This document shows positions 54,746-63,571 of a stretch of DNA of 64,000 nucleotides, one piece after another. Each line of letters opens with the position of its first letter. The first letter of the stretch is position 1. A program made the position numbers and the translations under genes. The stretch is taken from NCBI GenBank assembly GCA_012510495.1, contig JAAZHX010000095.1, positions 1 to 64,000 on the forward strand. Reading direction: 5' to 3'. The notes under the pieces were generated by a model that worked only from the letters and a program-made list of their open reading frames with translations, ran no database searches and had not been told where the DNA came from. Origin of the DNA: Smithella sp. GTDB lineage: Bacteria; Desulfobacterota; Syntrophia; Syntrophales; Smithellaceae.

Positions 54746-55312
54746 ATGGATGCTGTCTGGAAATCGCAGGGGGAAAAACTGCACACGCGAAACATTGCAA
54801 TATCAACCTACGAATGCGACGAAAACAGAATCATCGTGGAAGGTTTTCTGAAAGATGACCGGCTTCAGGAAACATTTGCGGTTACGGGCGAAACGTTTCC
54901 GGCCGGCGTGATTCACCACATGGGCATCCGTCTGCTGGTCAACTGCTCCACTTTTTTGATCGAGGATGTTGACGTTGATCTGGTCTCGGTTCCGCGGGAC
55001 GTCTGCCGGGAAACGCTCGACAGTCTTGCTCCCATCAGGGGTCTGACCATTACCCGAGGATTCACCTCCAAAGTCAAAAAACTGGTTGGGGGAACAAAAG
55101 GCTGCGCCCATCTGCTGGAGCTGCTGCTGGCCATGGCCCCGGCTGCCGTCCAGGGATTTGCCGCGCACCGGTTGAGAAAGCCACACGATTTTGATCCCCA
55201 GCAGGAAAAGCTTATACTGAAATTCCTGATCAACACCTGCCACGCCTGGCGCGAAGACGGCCCGTTCGTTCAAACGTACAGGGAAATGATCCAAAAGGCG
55301 CTGAAGCCTTAA
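54746..55312 (+). CDS. DUF2889 family protein
   Basis: 188 residues. The DUF2889 core is recognisable (LHTRNIAISTYECDENRIIVEG, then GGTKGCAHLLELLLAMAPAAVQG with a conserved Cys-His pair, then INTCHAWREDGP). The ATG at 54746 is preceded by GGGGTGAGG. The function is unknown; the Gly-Cys-x-His and Cys-His motifs suggest a metal site or catalysis. It is the last gene of the plus-strand run from 51.2 kb. Confidence 0.82.
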   Translation: MDAVWKSQGEKLHTRNIAISTYECDENRIIVEGFLKDDRLQETFAVTGETFPAGVIHHMGIRLLVNCSTFLIEDVDVDLVSVPRDVCRETLDSLAPIRGLTITRGFTSKVKKLVGGTKGCAHLLELLLAMAPAAVQGFAAHRLRKPHDFDPQQEKLILKFLINTCHAWREDGPFVQTYREMIQKALKP

Positions 55313-55551
55313 GAATATTTCCGGTAAAAAACGTCAATGCCGCGGACATGCTCGGTATGCTCGTGGGAGATGAAGACACCCCGCAATTTGGACAAAGAAA
55401 TCCCTGGCCGGTCCATCCTCTCCACGATCTGCTTTGTGATCACGCCTGCGTCGATCAAAATGGCATCCTCGTCATTTTCAACATAATAGCAGTTGCCATT
55501 GCTGCCGGAAGCAATAGCCTTCTTGTTCTTTTCTGACAGGGTTGTTCCCAT
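55309..55551 (-). pseudogene. MBL-fold hydrolase, N-terminal fragment
   Basis: The N-terminal ~70 residues of a YycJ-type metallo-beta-lactamase protein are present (SGSNGNCYYVEND, ILIDAGV, GVFISHEHTEHVRGI), then the frame stops at 55309, overlapping the DUF2889 stop. Complete members have about 260 residues. The metal motif reads HEHTEH with Glu in place of the usual Asp, a further sign of decay. Confidence 0.75.
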
Positions 55552-55798: not shown

Positions 55799-56278
55799 TT
55801 AACGGCGGGTTAGACATTTTTCTATCTTCTCCCATTTCTCTTTGTAAGCCTGAACATCCGCGGATTTTATTCCCATACCCACGAAACCATCCCGCCAAGT
55901 TGGGATGTTGGTGCTGGAAATAGTGACTTTCCCTGTCTTCACATGGCCTGTTTGTACGCAGCGCACATCAATGACCTGTGCCCAATCGTTGGAATTAAGA
56001 ATATAAAAATCAGGTCTTGAATATTCTGGCTTCCTTTCAAAGTCCACCAGAACGAGCACTATATCTTTACCAAAAATACCTTTGATAGCGGGCCACTCTT
56101 TTTTTTGCTTGCTTTTTACCTGAATACGCAACATTGAATCGTCAGTCTCTACCAGTAAATCTGTCCGTTTCCGATTTCCAAGAGTGAGCTGTGCATAAAT
56201 ATCAAGTTTGCAAAGCTCACTGGCCACAGCATATTCACCTGCCAATCCTAACGTTTCTTTTGAAAGATATTTTTTCAT
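55799..56278 (-). CDS. PD-(D/E)XK nuclease-like protein in a cassette-like setting
   Basis: 159 residues. E15 (LAGEYAVASEL), D40 (RTDLLVE) and Q53-x-K55 (IQVKSK) fit a PD-(D/E)XK nuclease fold like that of intron-linked or group-I-endonuclease-like proteins. GAGGAGA lies 6 bases before the ATG, and an inverted repeat with attC-like cores (56294-56360) lies 16 bases upstream; GTCTAAC overlaps the last codons. AT-richer than the housekeeping genes. It probably binds or cuts DNA, but the partner is unknown. The 247 bases after it (55552-55798) show no gene. Confidence 0.75.
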   Translation of the reverse strand: MKKYLSKETLGLAGEYAVASELCKLDIYAQLTLGNRKRTDLLVETDDSMLRIQVKSKQKKEWPAIKGIFGKDIVLVLVDFERKPEYSRPDFYILNSNDWAQVIDVRCVQTGHVKTGKVTISSTNIPTWRDGFVGMGIKSADVQAYKEKWEKIEKCLTRR

Positions 56279-56293
56279 TTATAATCTCCTCAT

Positions 56294-56360
56294 GCCTAAA
56301 GCTCGGATTCAAACACGGCGATACGCTACCGACGACTTTGTTTGGCACCCGTAGTTAGCT
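56294..56360 (-). repeat. attC-like inverted repeat
   Basis: GCCTAAA (56294-56300) and GTTAGCT (56354-56360) form imperfect outer arms resembling integron core sites. Inner arms CGG/CCG and CAAACA (56310-56315)/TGTTTG (56339-56344) continue the stem around a 23-base loop. Total length 67 bases, normal for attC. It sits between the stop of the ERCC4 gene and the start of the PD-(D/E)XK gene. Confidence 0.4.
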
Positions 56361-56447
56361 GTACTTTGTTTTCGATTGAAACTCAAAAACTCCTCATGAC
56401 TGGTTTTGAATTCTTAATGGCAATGATATATTTTAAGGAAACTTATT

Positions 56448-57035
56448 TTACAAATCCCCCTCCTGCAGAACGCGGCCGAATCCATTTTCTTCCAGATACC
56501 AGTATGTAAAATGCTTGGATAACCAGCTTGCGGCCTTTTCTTCCGCCAAGGGGCGAAAGCGCGAAGTGTAAATCACCGGAATACCGTAGCGGGCTTCCAG
56601 GGCGTCGAGCGTTCCGGAGACGGCGTTCGGGTGGGCCAGCGTTTCGTATTCATCCTGATCATACGGAGTCTTGATGTCCTCATAGCTTGCTTCAATCAGC
56701 AAGGCTTTCCATCGGTATTTTGACATTTTCTCACATTGTTTGAAAAACCGAATGCGTTGTTGAATAACAGTTGTGATCAAATCGGTCAGCGTTTTACGCT
56801 CCAGAATCAGCAATTCCTCCATGCCTTCCACGCTGTAATCTCCGGCCTTCAGTGCCTGGCTTTTTGATCCGGCAATCCAGTTTGGAAACCGGCTGAAGTC
56901 AAATGGATGCTTTTCCCGTGTGTCGATCAGAACTACGGGTTTTGGAATCTGTCGTGTAATGCTGTGGCCGTTTCGCTTAACGATCAAACGGCCCGTTGGC
57001 GGCGCTGCCGGGTACCATTCCTGTTCTTCTGTCAT
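56448..57035 (-). CDS. XPF/ERCC4-type nuclease domain protein
   Basis: About 195 residues. The ERCC4 nuclease motif is complete: VVLIDTREKHPFD, then AGDYSVEG and LILERKTLTDLI (the ERKxxxD signature), with a conserved downstream helical region. XPF-family nucleases cut branched or single-strand/double-strand junction DNA. In bacteria, such short ERCC4 proteins occur in phage and defence regions. The ATG at 57035 is preferred to GTG 57041 because AGGTG lies just before it. An 8-bp inverted repeat (GATTTAGT/ACTAAATC, 57063-57094) lies upstream. Confidence 0.85.
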   Translation of the reverse strand: MTEEQEWYPAAPPTGRLIVKRNGHSITRQIPKPVVLIDTREKHPFDFSRFPNWIAGSKSQALKAGDYSVEGMEELLILERKTLTDLITTVIQQRIRFFKQCEKMSKYRWKALLIEASYEDIKTPYDQDEYETLAHPNAVSGTLDALEARYGIPVIYTSRFRPLAEEKAASWLSKHFTYWYLEENGFGRVLQEGDL

Positions 57036-57076
57036 GTTCACCTACCACCACCACAAAAAGATGATTTAGTATCGTG

Positions 57077-57217
57077 TCATCGAGGGACTAAATCTCCGGA
57101 GAATCCAAGAAGGCGTAAATCTTTTCCGAAGCTCCCTTGACAATTTTCATAAGGTCTTTTTTCCGCTTTATTCAGGCTGAGTAATACGGCAAAAAACAGA
57201 TCACGTTCTTTTTCCAC
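57077..57217 (-). CDS. Possible small overlapping ORF
   Basis: From GTG 57217 an open frame of 46 codons reads EKERDLFFAVLLSLNKAEKR and ends at 57077. It overlaps the last 17 bases of the coiled-coil gene in another frame, with GAAAGG about 9 bases upstream. No family is recognised. It could be a real small gene coupled to its neighbour or chance. Confidence 0.25.
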   Translation of the reverse strand: MEKERDLFFAVLLSLNKAEKRPYENCQGSFGKDLRLLGFSGDLVPR

Positions 57218-57515
57218 GAAGAGACCTTTCAATTTCTCTGAAATTTTTCTTCACTTGTTGGAGTTTAGCCTGATATTCTTTTCTCTGTTTCAATTTTGCG
57301 CAAAGGGCCTTCCGTTCTTCAGGGACATCTTTTCCGATATAATCAAAGACAACCTTTTTGTCTTTACGATACGCAAGATAAATATATTTTTGGCCGCCTC
57401 TTTCTTTTATCGATATGGCACCCTGTGGACATTCCAAAATCTTTTTCTCGTAAAAAACGATTAGATTTTTCAGCCGTTCATGTTCTTCTTCCAGAATGCC
57501 TCTAATGATGCTCAT
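57201..57515 (-). CDS. Small coiled-coil protein of unknown function
   Basis: 104 residues. The N-terminal helix (GILEEEHERLKNLIVFYEKK) and C-terminal basic coiled coil (RKALCAKLKQRKEYQAKLQQ) flank a short beta region with IYLAYRKDKKVVFDYIGK. The start at 57515 has AAAGGTGG directly before it, adjoining a perfect 10-bp inverted repeat with GCCTAAC/GTTAGGC cores. AT-rich. It lies in the nuclease island; the role is unknown. Confidence 0.65.
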   Translation of the reverse strand: MSIIRGILEEEHERLKNLIVFYEKKILECPQGAISIKERGGQKYIYLAYRKDKKVVFDYIGKDVPEERKALCAKLKQRKEYQAKLQQVKKNFREIERSLRGKRT

Positions 57516-57523
57516 AAACCACC

Positions 57524-57566
57524 TTTGCCTAACATAATGGGGAAATATTATATATTGTTAGGCAAA
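57524..57566 (-). repeat. Short inverted repeat with canonical attC core sites
   Basis: TTTGCCTAAC (57524-57533) and GTTAGGCAAA (57557-57566) are exact reverse complements separated by 23 AT-rich bases. GCCTAAC and GTTAGGC equal the consensus integron R'' and R' cores, but the 43-base total is short for attC. It could otherwise be a structured transcript end. Confidence 0.5.
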
Positions 57567-57613
57567 TACTGGAAATAATTGTTCCGGATATTTTATTGTC
57601 CACCTGTCAGCTA

Positions 57614-58612
57614 TTAATTGCCAATCAAGTGTTGTGCCGCTGGAACGTCCTGTGAAACTGAGAATGCATTCTGTAAAATACCATACTTGTAGCCAATTGT
57701 TTTATTATGAAAATATTCCACCATCACTTGTTTGTCACGGCTGTCTGGTGCATCTTCCACTATGTAATTGTATATTCCTTCCCAAGTTATACGCTTAAAC
57801 TGTCGTTGTCCGTCAACTTGTATAATATGGGGGATAAACCGTTCTTCAATGTCTTTATCTCTTTCAGACAGGACAATATTAATCAGGTAAAAATTCCGAT
57901 TCATTTCTTTCGCAAGCCAACTGCCAAGCAGCCAAAAGCGAAACAACTCGTATTTCTTTGCTTGTATCGCTACTGTATCAAAATCCGATCTGAATACTTG
58001 TTTATACCAGCCGTTGCCGCCTGTTAGATATTTTTTGCGATTATTTTTATCGCTTGGTGAGGTATTATTTGTGGCTGTCAATTTCGCTTCAATAAAATAG
58101 AGTGCTTTATCGGTTAATGCTATCAAATCGGGCTCAGAGCCGCGTGCCGGGTTTTCTCCAAATTCCTTCCTGGCTGTTTTTAATTCCTGCCATACGCCTT
58201 TCAATTTTGGCGAGTATGACCAATATATCAAATCTGCTTCAATGTAACTCACATGCCCAAAATGAGACAACAGGCTGGCTAATTGGTTGGTATTCTCTAG
58301 ATATCGAAAGACGTTCCAAGTTAGAGAGTCCTCGCTATTATCACGTTCAATGCGGCTTTCTCGCTTGTCTTTTTTTATTTCTTCCAGTAAATTCAAATCT
58401 GTTTTATTTTGCCATAACAAATTATCTTTCTCGTTGTTATATTCAAAGGTGGAAGGTGAGATATAGATTTTATGTTCGGGACACAGAAATCTTGCTTCGC
58501 GTCTGAATGAGCGACGTTGCCTTTCGACTATGCAACTACAACCCTTGACCGGACATTCAACTGTTGTTTGAGTTATGGTTATTATTTGCTTCAAATCTTT
58601 TATGCCAAACAT
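57614..58612 (-). CDS. Zinc-motif PD-(D/E)XK nuclease-like protein
   Basis: 332 residues. The N-terminus carries a zinc-binding candidate: C20, C25, C27, C44 and H47 (VECPVKGCSC and FLCPEH). The C-terminal part has a PD-(D/E)XK core, E95 in SEDSLTWNVFRYL, D162 in SEPDLIAL and E175-x-K177 in YFIEAKLT. This combination resembles restriction-like endonucleases. AAAGGAG in the end of the HD gene serves as its ribosome site, so the two are coupled (14-base gap). AT-rich relative to neighbours. Target unknown. Confidence 0.78.
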   Translation of the reverse strand: MFGIKDLKQIITITQTTVECPVKGCSCIVERQRRSFRREARFLCPEHKIYISPSTFEYNNEKDNLLWQNKTDLNLLEEIKKDKRESRIERDNSEDSLTWNVFRYLENTNQLASLLSHFGHVSYIEADLIYWSYSPKLKGVWQELKTARKEFGENPARGSEPDLIALTDKALYFIEAKLTATNNTSPSDKNNRKKYLTGGNGWYKQVFRSDFDTVAIQAKKYELFRFWLLGSWLAKEMNRNFYLINIVLSERDKDIEERFIPHIIQVDGQRQFKRITWEGIYNYIVEDAPDSRDKQVMVEYFHNKTIGYKYGILQNAFSVSQDVPAAQHLIGN

Positions 58613-58626
58613 AAGGAACTCCTTTA

Positions 58627-59253
58627 TTAGATTTGTTTATCTCGCCCCTCTTCATAGATATGCGCTGTCCAGTAATCTGCCCAATGAAGAAGCAACGTCA
58701 GCGGTTCCTCTTTGTGGGCCACAACTTTGTTGTCATCGATGTATTGGCCGTCATGGTAGGCAATGGCCTGTGCTTCGGTTTCAGAAAGAGAAATATATTG
58801 CGAAATGAGATAGAGACTACGGACGGCCAGGCCCATCGTAACGACGTCCGGGTTTGTTTTGTAGCATATACCCCGGTTTTTCACCATCCCCTCGTTGTCA
58901 TTGGGCAAATAGTAAGGTTTTCCCGGCGCACCCAGTTTGCCGACATCATGAAACAGCCCGACGATGACACAGCTTTCTTCGCTGATCTTTGGCGCAAGAA
59001 ATCCCCGAAACCGCAAAAGAGTTTCCGCAACGCCTACGCTGTGCTTCAGCAAACCGCGCTCCTGAGCCAGATGAAACCGCGTGCTGGCCGGGGCAGTAAG
59101 CCACGTTGTCTCATTCTCCAGCATAGCGACGAAGCGTTCAAACGGTTCCTTACGATCCATGATTTTCAGTTTCAATGCATTATAGTGATCTGATAATTCC
59201 ATGATCTTTTCTTCCTGTTCCTGAATAGGACAGATTCTTGATTTTATTGACAT
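58627..59253 (-). CDS. HD-domain hydrolase
   Basis: About 208 residues. The HD metal motif is GLFHDVGKLG, with an upstream histidine in RGLLKHSVGVAETLLRF and a later Asp in HWADYW. HD proteins hydrolyse phosphoesters of nucleotides or (oligo)nucleotides. The start at 59253 is chosen because GGGGGAG lies 9 bases upstream; an inner ATG at 59202 with GGAAG is possible. A CCCCTCTTT/AAAGAGGGG hairpin lies just before the ribosome site. The substrate could be a nucleotide signal or dNTP. Confidence 0.83.
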   Translation of the reverse strand: MSIKSRICPIQEQEEKIMELSDHYNALKLKIMDRKEPFERFVAMLENETTWLTAPASTRFHLAQERGLLKHSVGVAETLLRFRGFLAPKISEESCVIVGLFHDVGKLGAPGKPYYLPNDNEGMVKNRGICYKTNPDVVTMGLAVRSLYLISQYISLSETEAQAIAYHDGQYIDDNKVVAHKEEPLTLLLHWADYWTAHIYEEGRDKQI

Positions 59254-59262
59254 TCTAAAAAT

Positions 59263-59292
59263 CTCCCCCAACCCCTCTTTCAAAAAGAGGGG
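59263..59292. repeat. Palindromic intergenic repeat
   Basis: CCCCTCTTT (59272-59280) pairs with AAAGAGGGG (59284-59292) across a 3-base loop, preceded by CTCCCCCAA. It belongs with the C-rich/G-rich hairpins at 25192-25213 and 61690-61725 and lies between the AAA+ and HD genes. Confidence 0.65.
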
Positions 59293-59404
59293 AGCTTGAT
59301 GCTTAATTCAACGACATTGATTCCTGCTTTATAAATTTTGTATCGTAATTGCCTTCAGTGTTATTTACTTGACGAGTTTTGATTATGAACCTCTTTATTG
59401 TCTT

Positions 59405-61666
59405 TTATTTTCCACCGAATAACACCGGCGCTTTATTCTTTCCCCGGTACTTTTCAATGACGATCTTCACTGTTTCCATCGACGGTGAATAGGGCTTCCC
59501 TTCAATCATTGACCGGATGGATGCACGGTGGACAATGCTGTCGATTTCCGCAATGTGCATTGGATATCGCTCGACCAATTCAACAAGACTCTCGTCGGTT
59601 GACGTGCCCGGCATCAGATGTTTTTCCCATTGCCGGATTTGCATGTCTTCCGACGGATAATCCAGTTTGAAATGGGCGTGGAATTCCAGCGGGATGACGG
59701 TTTGAGGGCATTCGTGCAGGACGAGGCAGCAAAGACCCCGATATTCGCGCAGTTTATTTAAAAGTTCCGCCACAGCATTTCTTACGGACAGGCGGCTGTC
59801 CATGTCATTTTGTTTTCCTGTATCCTGCCATGCAATAACCCCGTTGTAGTCAACAATCATCAGCAGGTGAGATTCTTCCGTTGTCTGACCAAACGCGTAG
59901 TCTATCAATCTCGTTTTTTCCTGCGATACCATGTCAATCGTTTCATTATCATTTGTAAAATTGTCCATATCGCCAAATTTGAAACTTTTGATTTTCAGTT
60001 TGCACTCGGCGGCCAGCGCCTCCGCGGCAGAGATGCCGGTTTCAATATTTGTTCCGCTTATCAAAAGATTCAGTCCGGTTTCATTTTCCCGCGAGTACTG
60101 AAACGCTTTGGCGATATTCTTCAATTCAAGACGCTGCCTGGCCGCCAGCGGAAGCCTATCGATTATTTTTTCCGGTCTGTAAATCCTGCAGTATTTATGG
60201 TTTTGCGACATCCGGTGTGTTTGCAAATCCGCGGATTGTTCGAGGAGCGCCTGTGTGATGACGGGGCTGCCGCTTTCATCCGGTTCTGCGGCGTTGGCGG
60301 CGAGTAAAATGGTGTTTTTGATCAGGCCGCCGCTGAAAGGATAGCGCGCGTTGAGAGCCTCCAGGTTCACATCCGACGCCAGTTTGATAAAACCGGGCAG
60401 CAGCGCCTGCCAGATTTTCATTCTTTGAGATGCATCGGGCAGCGGAAAGTGAATTTTCATGGATAGACGCCGCTCCAGGGCCGGATCGAGGCCCCCCGCC
60501 TTATTGGTGGCCAGGATCACAACGCATTTTGCTTTTTCAATCCGGATGAGCAGCATTCTGGAAAGATGGGATCCTTCCCTGAAGATGTCGTCGGCTTCAT
60601 CGAAGAAAATGAAGCCGTTGAGCAGGGCGGCTTCCCGGAAAGCCTGAATCATGATGGCCTCCGTTTGCCATCTGTAGGATGCGTCGCTTAGGTTAACGGT
60701 TATGAGAGGCCGGTTGAAATGATGCGCCAGCGCTCTGGCCATCATCGTTTTACCGGTCCCGGACGGTCCCTGGAAAAAGAAGGTCAGCGCCGTGCCATAT
60801 TCCAGAAAGTCATCCAGCCGGGACCATTCCCTCCTTTCTTTCCGGCACCGATACCTGGCAATGTGGTCAACCAACGGTTTTTTCACATGTGCGGACATGA
60901 CGACGCTTTCCAGATCAATGGTGCTCTGCTCAATGCTGATTTCGTCATAGGTGCTCTTGTACAGGCGGTTGTCGCCGACAATGACGCGGACGTGACGCTC
61001 ATTGATGGTCACGATTTCATCCATGACGTGCGAACTTCTTCTTTCATAATCGCTTTTGAAGAAAATGATCTCTCGGGCGACCAGCGGCGCTGTTCTGCTG
61101 AAATGCCTTCTTTTCTCCAACTGTTCCCCATAGTCCATGCTGAGGATGAAAAGAATGACGCGGATGATTATGCCCCTGTTGTCATAGTCCAAGCCACAGG
61201 GGAGGAAAGCCTTGCGGAAGGTCTCACTGGTGGCGTGCATGAACAGAAGCAGAAGAATTTTTTCATCAAAGTCATCCAGGTGGTTTTCCCGGCAAAACAT
61301 CGGAAAGAAAAGCCTGACTCCGGAGAGCAATGTTTTGTTTTGGCGCGACCTGTTGATGCTGCGAACTCGGGCCAGCTCTGTTTCTATGTGCTCCCGAGTG
61401 ATATTTTGCGGCGTCAGGTTCAGACCGGCACAGAGCCGGATCCCTGCGCCGTCGTTTTCCAACCAATCGGTTTTCCCCGAACGGACCGCTGACAGAACAA
61501 GCATCAGCAGAGCCTCTTTCTCCAGAGCGGCAAGGTATTCATAATTGTCGGCAAAAGGTTCTTCATTCATGCCCGGATTCGATTCGTGCACAATAGACAG
61601 CAATTGACTTGCTTGCTCCCCGCACAAAGCCTGATCGTGTTCGGCGATACTTTGCATAGTGCTCAT
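59405..61666 (-). CDS. Large AAA+ ATPase with one active and one degenerate ATPase module
   Basis: 753 residues. Residues 1-280 have no recognised domain. The first AAA+ module has Walker A GPSGTGKT (300-307), Walker B FIFFDEADD (352-360), sensor 1 ATNK (387-389) and an arginine pair ERR near 399. A second module (about 510-720) keeps the fold but lacks Walker motifs (SGTNIETGIS in place of a P-loop). Such a pattern fits a hexameric remodeller or unfoldase. It follows a ClpP-like gene on the same strand, so it may feed the protease. No clear ClpX-type IGF loop is seen. Confidence 0.82.
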   Translation of the reverse strand: MSTMQSIAEHDQALCGEQASQLLSIVHESNPGMNEEPFADNYEYLAALEKEALLMLVLSAVRSGKTDWLENDGAGIRLCAGLNLTPQNITREHIETELARVRSINRSRQNKTLLSGVRLFFPMFCRENHLDDFDEKILLLLFMHATSETFRKAFLPCGLDYDNRGIIIRVILFILSMDYGEQLEKRRHFSRTAPLVAREIIFFKSDYERRSSHVMDEIVTINERHVRVIVGDNRLYKSTYDEISIEQSTIDLESVVMSAHVKKPLVDHIARYRCRKERREWSRLDDFLEYGTALTFFFQGPSGTGKTMMARALAHHFNRPLITVNLSDASYRWQTEAIMIQAFREAALLNGFIFFDEADDIFREGSHLSRMLLIRIEKAKCVVILATNKAGGLDPALERRLSMKIHFPLPDASQRMKIWQALLPGFIKLASDVNLEALNARYPFSGGLIKNTILLAANAAEPDESGSPVITQALLEQSADLQTHRMSQNHKYCRIYRPEKIIDRLPLAARQRLELKNIAKAFQYSRENETGLNLLISGTNIETGISAAEALAAECKLKIKSFKFGDMDNFTNDNETIDMVSQEKTRLIDYAFGQTTEESHLLMIVDYNGVIAWQDTGKQNDMDSRLSVRNAVAELLNKLREYRGLCCLVLHECPQTVIPLEFHAHFKLDYPSEDMQIRQWEKHLMPGTSTDESLVELVERYPMHIAEIDSIVHRASIRSMIEGKPYSPSMETVKIVIEKYRGKNKAPVLFGGK

Positions 61667-61689
61667 TTGTTTTTTCCTTTCATTGTTTG

Positions 61690-61725
61690 GTTCCCCCTCC
61701 CCTCAATCCCCTCCCACAAGGGGAA
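61690..61725. repeat. C-rich palindromic repeat
   Basis: CCCCTCCC...CAATCCCCTCCCACAAGGGGAAG in the gap between the ClpP-like and AAA+ genes contains a short TCCCCT/AGGGGA stem and resembles the repeats at 25192 and 59263. Confidence 0.45.
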
Positions 61726-61823
61726 GATACGAAAGACAACGGCCGGCATTGTCTGTCCTGAATCACCATCTCCAGGGACAGGAAGATGATCAGGCGACGT
61801 AGGCCAAAAGATACCGGACCGGA

Positions 61824-62390
61824 TTAATGCTTCTTCCTTATGGGTTCGACAACGTCCACAATGCCCATCCGGATTGCCTCTTCCGTGGTGAGCCAGGTGT
61901 CGACATCTCTTAAGAGGTATGCTTCCAGTTCGTTGCGGTCCTTGATGCCGGAATAGGTCATGTAATGATTCAGGATGCGCTCGTGCAGCATGTCTTCTTC
62001 CCGCCGTCCCGCGATGAGCTGGCTGTGATTGCCGAAGTTCATGGCCGAGAAGCGATGCGATAATATGGATGTCCGTGGCGTGACGACGCGGTGCCCTTTT
62101 TCGCCGGTCATGAAGATCAAAAGCCCCATGGAAGCGATCATCCCGATTCCGGTTGTGTAGATGGGAATGCTCGACCATTCCATGATGTCGATGATGGAGA
62201 AGCCGGCTGTGCAGGGGCCGCCCGGTGAATTGATCACCATCTGCACCTGGTTGATGCTGCCCTTGATGTTGAATTCGATGATCTGTTTGCAGACTTCCTC
62301 GGCCTTTGCCTCTCCGATCGCCCCGGACAGATAAATGATGCCGTAATCGATCAGTCCCCTTTCTTCCCTTTCTTTTTCTTTTGTGGCCAT
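61824..62390 (-). CDS. ClpP-like serine protease
   Basis: 188 residues of the ClpP fold. The catalytic triad is complete: S87 (IASMG), H112 (ILSHRFS) and D164 (RDVDTWL), with Ser-His spacing of 25 as in E. coli ClpP; the oxyanion loop NSPGGPCTAG is present. No N-terminal propeptide is seen. GGGAGG lies 6 bases before the ATG. It is not next to clpX or tig, as a housekeeping clpP would be; it leads the minus-strand set that starts opposite the WYL regulator, which suggests a specialised protease used with the downstream AAA+ protein. Confidence 0.88.
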   Translation of the reverse strand: MATKEKEREERGLIDYGIIYLSGAIGEAKAEEVCKQIIEFNIKGSINQVQMVINSPGGPCTAGFSIIDIMEWSSIPIYTTGIGMIASMGLLIFMTGEKGHRVVTPRTSILSHRFSAMNFGNHSQLIAGRREEDMLHERILNHYMTYSGIKDRNELEAYLLRDVDTWLTTEEAIRMGIVDVVEPIRKKH

Positions 62391-62416
62391 GCCAAACCTC
62401 CCGCCTTGATTTTAAT

Positions 62417-62427
62417 GTCATCATGAC
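62417..62427. promoter_or_regulatory. Candidate operator between clpP-like and WYL genes
   Basis: GTCATCATGAC is a perfect 11-base palindrome. Two further GTCAT half-sites follow at 62438 and 62448 in the 161-base divergent promoter region. They are plausible binding sites for the WYL regulator. Confidence 0.4.
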
Positions 62428-62551
62428 GCGCGGGAGTGTCATTTTTGGTCATTTTGAAAAAAATATTTTGCGTTTGGAGGCGATTGTCGGTAAAGTTCAC
62501 ATCATTATTGCGTTTATCGCGTCAAAAAAATCGACTTTAAGGTGAAAAATC

Positions 62552-63571
62552 ATGAGACTGAGACTGCTTCGAAAGCTTGTCGATGCCATTACCCTGCTGG
62601 CGCAGCCGACGGGAACGACCATTTCCGCTATTTGTGAAAGGCTTGCGATCGATAAACGGCAGGCCTATCGGGTGATTGAGGAAATCCAGAGTGAATTCAA
62701 GATCATGATTGACAAGGAAAAACCGCTGCCCGACGGCGAAATCCGGTATCATCTGGACAGGGAGTTCATCCGGCGGCTTTCTGACATCAAGGTGGCCGAC
62801 ATAAACCTGACATTCCCGGAAATCTTGAGTCTTTATTTCATTAAAGGTCACGCCCGCCTTTACCGCGGAACGGACATCGAGGAGAATATCGAAAGAGCCT
62901 TTGGCAAGCTGGATGTCTTCTTTCCGGAAGGATTTGCGAGAAACCTGGAAAGAATCAAGTCGCTTTTTCTGATGGCGGACAAACTCACCAAGGATTACAC
63001 CGGCAAGGAAAAAACAATTGAAAAACTGACGGACGCCTTCCTGCGGCAGAAAACATGCCGCATTGAATATCATTCCTATTCCTCAGGGAAAGTCAGCCGC
63101 TTCGATATCGATCCGCTGAAGCTTTTTGAATGGAACGGCGGCCTTTATATATCGGCGCGTATTTCTAAAGATGACATGATCCGCACGCTGGCCGTGGAAA
63201 GAATCAGCAGTATCTCTCTATCCGAAAAAGATTTTTCTTATCCCGAGGATTTCAATCCGGATGAAATCCTGGAAGACGCGTTCGGCATCATTTACGACGA
63301 TCCGGTGGCCGTCAAAATTCGCTTCAGCCCGAAACAGGCGCCCTACATTCAGGAAAGAAAATGGTGCAAAAATCAAGACATTGAAAAGTGCGCGGACGGA
63401 TCACTTCACCTGACCCTGCGCACATCCGGCTGGTATGATGTTCAAAAATGGATTCTTTCCTTTGGCGCGGACGCCGAGCTTTTGGAGCCTGAGGACAAGA
63501 GAAAGGAAGTCATGGAAGAGATCAGCCGGACGGCCGCGCTTTACCGCCTGGGCAGAAAACCGTCAGGATGA
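62552..63571 (+). CDS. WYL-domain transcriptional regulator
   Basis: 339 residues. An N-terminal helix-turn-helix (TISAICERLAIDKRQAYRVIEEI) is followed by a WYL domain (CRIEYHSYSSGKVSRFDIDPLKLFEWNGGLYISAR) and a WCX-type C-terminal extension (VAVKIRFSPKQAPYI...GWYDVQKWILSFG). WYL proteins bind nucleic-acid or nucleotide ligands and often control defence operons. It is divergent from the ClpP-AAA+-HD-nuclease set and probably regulates it. AAGGTG precedes the ATG. Confidence 0.9.
   Translation: MRLRLLRKLVDAITLLAQPTGTTISAICERLAIDKRQAYRVIEEIQSEFKIMIDKEKPLPDGEIRYHLDREFIRRLSDIKVADINLTFPEILSLYFIKGHARLYRGTDIEENIERAFGKLDVFFPEGFARNLERIKSLFLMADKLTKDYTGKEKTIEKLTDAFLRQKTCRIEYHSYSSGKVSRFDIDPLKLFEWNGGLYISARISKDDMIRTLAVERISSISLSEKDFSYPEDFNPDEILEDAFGIIYDDPVAVKIRFSPKQAPYIQERKWCKNQDIEKCADGSLHLTLRTSGWYDVQKWILSFGADAELLEPEDKRKEVMEEISRTAALYRLGRKPSG

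What the first reader, a model, noticed from the sequence alone, without database searches (positions are those of the whole stretch)
55799..63571. Candidate undescribed module: WYL regulator, ClpP-like protease, dual AAA+ ATPase, HD hydrolase and three nucleases
Seen: a WYL gene diverges from a same-strand set encoding a ClpP-like protease with intact S87/H112/D164, a 753-aa AAA+ protein with a degenerate second module, an HD protein, two PD-(D/E)XK proteins, a coiled-coil protein and an ERCC4 nuclease. Known: WYL proteins often control defence loci, and protease, ATPase and nuclease parts recur in anti-phage systems. Inference: the AAA+ protein unfolds or senses a target for the ClpP-like protease, with the HD and nuclease proteins as effectors. 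I do not recognise this gene set as any named system.
Basis: partly seen in the sequence, partly recalled or inferred. Interest (0 to 1): 0.8.

Follow-up and report, generated by a model that had tools for sequence, protein, structure and literature searches.

The report
Dedicated ClpP–AAA+ protease in defence islands
A bacterium carries a spare protein-shredding machine (a ClpP-type protease whose gene always sits beside that of its own unusual ATPase, under a switch-like regulator) that recurs among anti-virus genes in distantly related bacteria and probably destroys proteins when a virus attacks.

Summary
The core is a ClpP-fold serine protease plus a 753-aa AAA+ protein. They are adjacent in 17 of 17 loci whose contigs cover both, in the window's family, in other families of its phylum and in one Synergistota genome. 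A WYL regulator precedes them in 13 of 15 testable loci. ClpP has an intact triad and forms a family well separated from housekeeping ClpP. The ATPase belongs with injection-system-loading ATPases (Pvc15), but with activity reversed: first AAA active, second degenerate. Its flexible C-terminus carries an invariant L-F-G in 15/15 ClpP-linked proteins and 0/32 bacterial relatives without ClpP: a candidate ClpP-docking tail. A dyad (TGTC-N7-GACA) lies at −65 to −69 of clpP only beside the window-type WYL. Neighbours include McrBC, type I RM, Zac, HEC-07 and DUF2779. HD, REase and ERCC4 form a separable cassette, found in one relative behind WYL plus ARPP-1 without ClpP. The coiled-coil gene is the orphan of a broken nucleotidyltransferase pair. 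Best reading: a WYL-controlled AAA+–ClpP protease acting in phage defence, analogous to IetAS but not a member. Docking and function are untested.

The parts
62552..63571 (+). WYL/WCX regulator with N-terminal HTH, divergent from clpP; 'window-type' WYL (54-77% identical in 5 other module loci)
62436..62476 (.). conserved intergenic block; contains the dyad TGTC-N7-G(A/T)CA (62437-62451), candidate WYL operator, 65 bp upstream of the clpP start
   Evidence: present at -65 to -69 in 6 loci with window-type WYL, not found in the 9 other loci tested; 0 expected by chance in the window
61824..62390 (-). ClpP-fold serine protease, triad S87/H112/D164 intact; distinct from the genome's housekeeping ClpP
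59405..61666 (-). AAA+ protein: N-terminal variant winged helix (33-237), active AAA D1 (Walker A G300-T307, Walker B D356-E357, sensor N388, R399/R400), degenerate AAA D2 (about 494-743), disordered tail with P-x-LFG (747-751)
58627..59283 (-). HD-domain hydrolase; accessory cassette gene
57614..58612 (-). REase-ARP (PF22558) PD-(D/E)XK nuclease; accessory cassette gene
57201..57515 (-). 104-aa coiled-coil protein, orphan partner of an NTP_transf_8 nucleotidyltransferase whose gene is internally deleted in the window (remnants about 57091-57217)
56448..57041 (-). ERCC4 nuclease; accessory cassette gene, 82-91% identical in the family
55799..56278 (-). PDDEXK_5-like protein (below Pfam cut-off); not seen in the related module loci, membership unlikely

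Best explanation
The core is a self-contained AAA+ protease: a ClpP-type barrel plus a dedicated two-module AAA+ ring derived from the family that loads contractile injection systems. The first AAA module hydrolyses ATP. The second, degenerate module faces ClpP, and its flexible C-terminal P-x-L-F-G tails plug into the apical pockets of ClpP, as ClpX's IGF loops do. The winged-helix N-domain recognises a substrate or invader signal. The WYL protein binds the TGTC-N7-GACA dyad between the two divergent genes and holds the operon down until it binds its ligand during infection. The protease then degrades phage proteins, or cell proteins so that the infected cell stops (abortive outcome). HD, REase-ARP and ERCC4 form an independent nuclease cassette sharing the island and probably a WYL-type control. 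Shown: gene pairing, intact active sites, conserved tail, conserved dyad, defence-island setting. Inferred: docking, unfolding, substrate, repression, defence function.
For: ClpP and AAA adjacent in 17/17 loci with both covered, across Smithellaceae/Syntrophaceae, Geomobilimonas and other Desulfobacterota families, and Synergistaceae at 25% AAA identity; in the phylum sample every strong module-ClpP hit had the AAA. The ClpP model is bimodal: module hits E <= 1e-95, housekeeping 4e-16 to 3e-21. S/H/D triad invariant. L-F-G invariant in 15/15 ClpP-linked AAA proteins with an intact end, the only run of three invariant residues in positions 490-753, inside a tail predicted disordered (pLDDT < 50 at 743-753); absent from 32/32 bacterial relatives without ClpP. 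ClpX docks by a flexible loop with (L/I/V)-G-(F/L) (PMC8745299). Apical-pocket residues differ from housekeeping ClpP, as expected for a private partner. Dyad at a fixed distance only with window-type WYL. Neighbours: McrBC, type I RM, ZacA/ZacC, HEC-07, PDC-M27/M57, NERD-UvrD, DUF2779. Sparse spread: 5/395 phylum, 1/181 Synergistota, 0/398 Pseudomonadota.
Against: No experiment. The pore-loop position of D1 has no conserved aromatic (p97 alignment), so threading is not assured. LFG is not the same order as IGF, and an archaeal single-AAA family without ClpP ends in PPxx[ML]F[AGSIV] (3 of about 31 end exactly in LFG), so the tail motif is not exclusive to ClpP partners. Two module loci (G292, G424) lack WYL nearby. 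Defence-island location is association only. The gap between clpP and the AAA gene in the window is 157 bp, whereas most relatives have a few to 20 bp or an overlap. Pocket mapping rests on one housekeeping ClpP and on remembered pocket positions.
Confidence: 0.55

Rival explanations
1. All eight genes are one defence system in which ATPase and ClpP sense or unfold, and the HD and nuclease proteins are the killing effectors.
For: In the family the order clpP-AAA-HD-REase(-ERCC4) recurs, with small insertions, in the window, L022, L023, L027 and L028, all on one strand.
Against: HD-REase-ERCC4 occurs in G034 behind WYL/ARPP-1 without ClpP/AAA; HD or ERCC4 apart from the module in G075, G076, G008, G074. 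Module loci outside the family lack the cassette. The coiled-coil gene is an orphan.
Confidence: 0.15
2. A stress or protein-quality protease of the host, ClpXP-like, that happens to sit in genomic islands.
For: ClpP plus AAA+ is the standard plan for quality control; the folds match p97 and ClpP.
Against: Sparse, patchy spread; defence neighbours; WYL control; a housekeeping ClpP is present in the same genome.
Confidence: 0.2
3. The AAA protein is a chaperone or loader like Pvc15 and does not feed ClpP; ClpP cleaves or is gated on its own, the two being linked only by regulation.
For: The closest characterised relative, Pvc15, loads effectors and has no reported protease partner (PMC11495950); no conserved aromatic pore loop.
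Against: No contractile injection genes seen next to the module loci; obligate ClpP neighbour; ClpP-linked C-terminal LFG and degenerate D2.
Confidence: 0.08
4. Phage-derived head-maturation protease remnant.
For: PHROG hits to head maturation proteases; large-phage ClpPs are 40-44% identical.
Against: No capsid, portal or terminase genes noted near the module loci examined; AAA partner present, whereas those phage ClpPs lack the AAA.
Confidence: 0.02

Closest known systems
ClpXP / ClpAP AAA+ proteases
   Same: ClpP-fold serine peptidase with its own AAA+ ring; hydrophobic tripeptide in a flexible segment as likely dock
   Different: The AAA is of the vWHD/Pvc15-type lineage, not ClpX/ClpA; motif is L-F-G at the C-terminus, not I-G-F in a loop; ClpP is far from housekeeping ClpP (59.7 against 357 bits in the same genome)
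IetAS (AAA+ IetA plus subtilisin-like IetS, anti-phage)
   Same: AAA+ ATPase paired with a serine protease; the D1 region matches IetA models at 2.7e-19
   Different: NCBIfam IteA score 63.7 against cut-off 510; protease is ClpP-fold, not subtilisin (IetS from my own knowledge); extra winged-helix domain and degenerate second AAA; WYL control
Pvc15/Afp15 ATPases of contractile injection systems
   Same: N-domain, then two AAA modules; PF22977 winged helix shared with a relative of that layout
   Different: In Pvc15 D1 is degenerate and D2 active (PMC11495950); here D1 is active and D2 degenerate; LFG tail and ClpP partner
Large-phage ClpP proteases (jumbo and T4-like phages)
   Same: 40-44% identity, closer than housekeeping ClpP
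   Different: No AAA gene of this type within 8 kb
ARPP-1/REase-ARP gene sets
   Same: HD, REase-ARP and ERCC4 genes are shared with G034 behind WYL plus ARPP-1
   Different: No ARPP-1 in the window; there ClpP-AAA stands in its place

Membership tests
ClpP peptidase family | ClpP fold with Ser-His-Asp triad | tested here: met
ClpP peptidase family | tetradecameric barrel | not testable with these tools
   no multimer prediction available
ClpX/ClpA/ClpC unfoldases | ClpX/A/C-type AAA domain with internal (L/I/V)-G-(F/L) loop | tested here: not met
   ClpX model 17.5 bits against cut-off 370.75; tripeptide is C-terminal LFG
IetAS | IetA above the curated cut-off | tested here: not met
   63.7 against 510 bits
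IetAS | subtilisin-like partner IetS | tested here: not met
   partner is ClpP
Pvc15/Afp15 eCIS ATPase | inactive D1 and active D2 | tested here: not met
   reverse arrangement
Pvc15/Afp15 eCIS ATPase | lies in a contractile injection gene cluster | tested here: not met
   no such genes noted beside the module loci read; neighbours were not all scanned by profile
WYL-regulated defence module | WYL gene adjacent, divergent or upstream | tested here: met
   13 of 15 testable loci
WYL-regulated defence module | protects against phage | not testable with these tools
   needs plaque assays
Known PADLOC defence system | core proteins hit a named system model | tested here: not met
   ClpP no hit; AAA only partial IetA/TRIP13-type hits

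The most novel reading that the evidence does not exclude
An undescribed anti-phage AAA+ protease in which an ATPase of the injection-system-loading lineage has swapped its active and inactive rings and gained a C-terminal L-F-G tail that docks on a private ClpP. This would be C-terminal-tail docking on a ClpP barrel, a mode known for proteasome and HslV partners but not, to my knowledge, for ClpP.
Probability: 0.4. Interest if true: 0.8.

Novelty: new variant of a known kind. Interest (0 to 1): 0.6.

Why it matters
If true, bacteria use a dedicated ClpP-type protease with its own motor in phage defence. Known protease-based defence pairs such as IetAS use other proteases. The invariant tail gives a one-step test (remove seven residues) of whether ATPase and ClpP work together, and would extend the rules of how AAA+ rings dock on ClpP. 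It also raises why large phages carry the nearest ClpP relatives without the ATPase.

Tried and rejected
Single-protein pattern scans with the AAA in viral and genome collections found nothing; the six-member alignment found 60 loci. Plasmid hits to the AAA cover only the D1 part or N-D1 part and are not the module; plasmid ClpP hits are about 31% identical. The ClpP tree with phages does not settle the direction of transfer (long branches, weak support). The HD fold prediction failed (mean pLDDT 40) and HD has no PDB match, so its chemistry (nuclease or nucleotidase) is open. A search for an empty insertion site beside the DUF2889 gene gave no clean site. No Rfam RNA or tRNA in the window. 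Head-maturation protease considered and rejected. Literature searches found no paper naming this gene pair; the library holds open-licence papers only, so a subscription paper could have been missed.
Full report
OBSERVATION. On the minus strand from 62390 down to 55799 are ClpP, a 753-aa AAA+ protein, HD, REase-ARP, a coiled-coil protein, ERCC4 and a PDDEXK_5-like protein; WYL runs the other way from 62552. No core protein belongs to a named PADLOC system. The region is lower in G+C (0.42-0.44 at 56-60 kb) than most of the window, 0.52-0.59. The genome is that of a Smithellaceae-type bacterium, judging from the titles of close relatives.

RECURRENCE. Strong relatives of the AAA protein were found in 10 of 155 class genomes, and by alignment in Geomobilimonas luticola, other Desulfobacterota and a Synergistaceae genome, with two further families in a phylum sample. 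A ClpP of the same family sits directly upstream in every locus whose contig covers both: window, G016, G019, G014, G008, G013, G078, G072, G074, L037, L038, L039, L040, L041, L042 (= G454), G292 and G424, i.e. 17 of 17. Searching with the ClpP alignment gives two separate classes: module ClpP at E <= 1e-95 and housekeeping ClpP at 4e-16 to 3e-21. Frequency: 5 of 395 phylum genomes, 1 of 181 Synergistota, 0 of 398 Pseudomonadota. A WYL gene lies upstream, divergent or co-oriented, in 13 of 15 testable loci; none was found near G292 and G424. There are two WYL types, window-like and L023-like.

THE PAIR. ClpP keeps S87, H112 and D164 in all 11 homologues down to 51% identity. The AAA protein has an N-terminal winged-helix domain (PF22977), an active first AAA module (Walker A 300-307, D356-E357, N388, R399/R400) and a degenerate second one. 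AlphaFold gives mean pLDDT 78.5, an AAA-like second domain, and a disordered tail from 743; the nearest solved folds are p97/Cdc48/Rix7. In 15 of 15 ClpP-linked proteins with an intact end the tail holds L-F-G, usually P-x-L-F-G, 0-8 residues from the terminus, at AAA identities down to 25%. It is the only run of three invariant residues in positions 490-753. Of 63 AAA relatives without the ClpP, none of 32 bacterial ones has it. Three archaeal single-AAA proteins end in LFG, and their family ends in PPxx[ML]F[AGSIV], which looks like the HbYX tails of proteasome ATPases (my comparison). ClpX docks on ClpP through a flexible loop with (L/I/V)-G-(F/L) that enters hydrophobic pockets (PMC8745299; PMC12383707). 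Several positions that I place in the pocket are changed in the module ClpP relative to the genome's own housekeeping ClpP (for example FFYLNSPGG there and QMVINSPGG here). These data fit a private docking pair; none shows docking.

ORIGIN. The nearest characterised relative is Pvc15 (N-domain, inactive D1, active D2; PMC11495950); the relation was made through plasmid hits in injection-system hosts and shared domain layout, not by a direct alignment to Pvc15 itself. A relative of that layout, L094, has PF22977 at 21-242 and its active AAA at 532-657, while in the module protein the active AAA is at about 296-409. The activity of the two rings has been exchanged. The nearest ClpPs outside the module are those of large phages, 40-44% identical, with no such AAA gene in the 8 kb on either side; the tree does not resolve direction.

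REGULATION. Between divergent clpP and WYL, four family loci share a block of about 40 bp amid diverged sequence. The core TGTC-N7-GACA (one mismatch in the window) lies at -65 to -69 from clpP in six loci with the window-type WYL (window, L022, L024, L026, L037, L040) and was not found in nine others. This is a candidate operator.

SETTING. Neighbours across loci: McrBC, PDC-M57B and HEC-07 (L041); type I RM (L027, L023); ZacA and ZacC (L023); PDC-M27A/B/C (L025); NERD-UvrD (L107); RtcR/CARF regulator (L027); DUF2779 nuclease-like genes in 8 loci. This is a defence-island setting.

WHAT DOES NOT BELONG. In the family, HD (81-94% identical) and ERCC4 (82-91%) often follow the pair, and REase-ARP is present in five loci. 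But HD-REase-ERCC4 stands in G034 behind WYL plus ARPP-1 with no ClpP or AAA; HD follows WYL and ARPP-1 in G008 away from its module; HD follows WYL and a CDC48-type AAA in G021; ERCC4 with the coiled-coil/nucleotidyltransferase pair occurs in G075 and G076. Far relatives of the module lack the cassette. In the window the nucleotidyltransferase gene is internally deleted, with only about 22 first and 26 last codons left, so the coiled-coil gene is an orphan. The WYL-fronted loci therefore look like a mosaic: a front module (ClpP-AAA, ARPP-1 or a CDC48-type AAA) with exchangeable cassettes.

VERDICT. A dedicated AAA+-ClpP protease under WYL control in defence islands: it works like ClpXP and IetAS but is a member of neither. 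Pairing, intact active sites, tail, dyad and setting are shown; docking, unfolding, target and defence function are inferred.

Noticed in passing
window 57091-57217 (-): Internally deleted NTP_transf_8 nucleotidyltransferase gene; intact copies beside the same coiled-coil and ERCC4 genes in G075 and G076 (L176, L177).
   Followed up: yes
window 55309-55551 (-): N-terminal 80-aa fragment of a metallo-beta-lactamase-fold gene at the left edge of the island, overlapping the end of the DUF2889 gene by a few bases.
   Followed up: partly
L109-L123, L132, L133: Large phages carry ClpPs closer to the module ClpP than to housekeeping ClpP, without this AAA gene nearby.
   Followed up: partly
L043-L086 (archaeal loci): A single-AAA archaeal protein family ends in PPxx[ML]F[AGSIV], resembling HbYX proteasome-docking tails; no ClpP nearby in the nine loci read.
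   Followed up: partly
L025:5767-8022: An extra CDC48-type double-AAA gene between WYL and clpP in G008; a similar, apparently split gene stands behind a like WYL in G021 (L174) without clpP.
   Followed up: partly
L106:2920-3864: A 315-aa FtsZ-like gene directly upstream of clpP-AAA on a WYL-less contig.
   Followed up: no
L037 and L040, between WYL and clpP: Small ORFs between WYL and clpP in Geomobilimonas and SKS4.bin43, one of them (91 aa) nearly identical in both.
   Followed up: no
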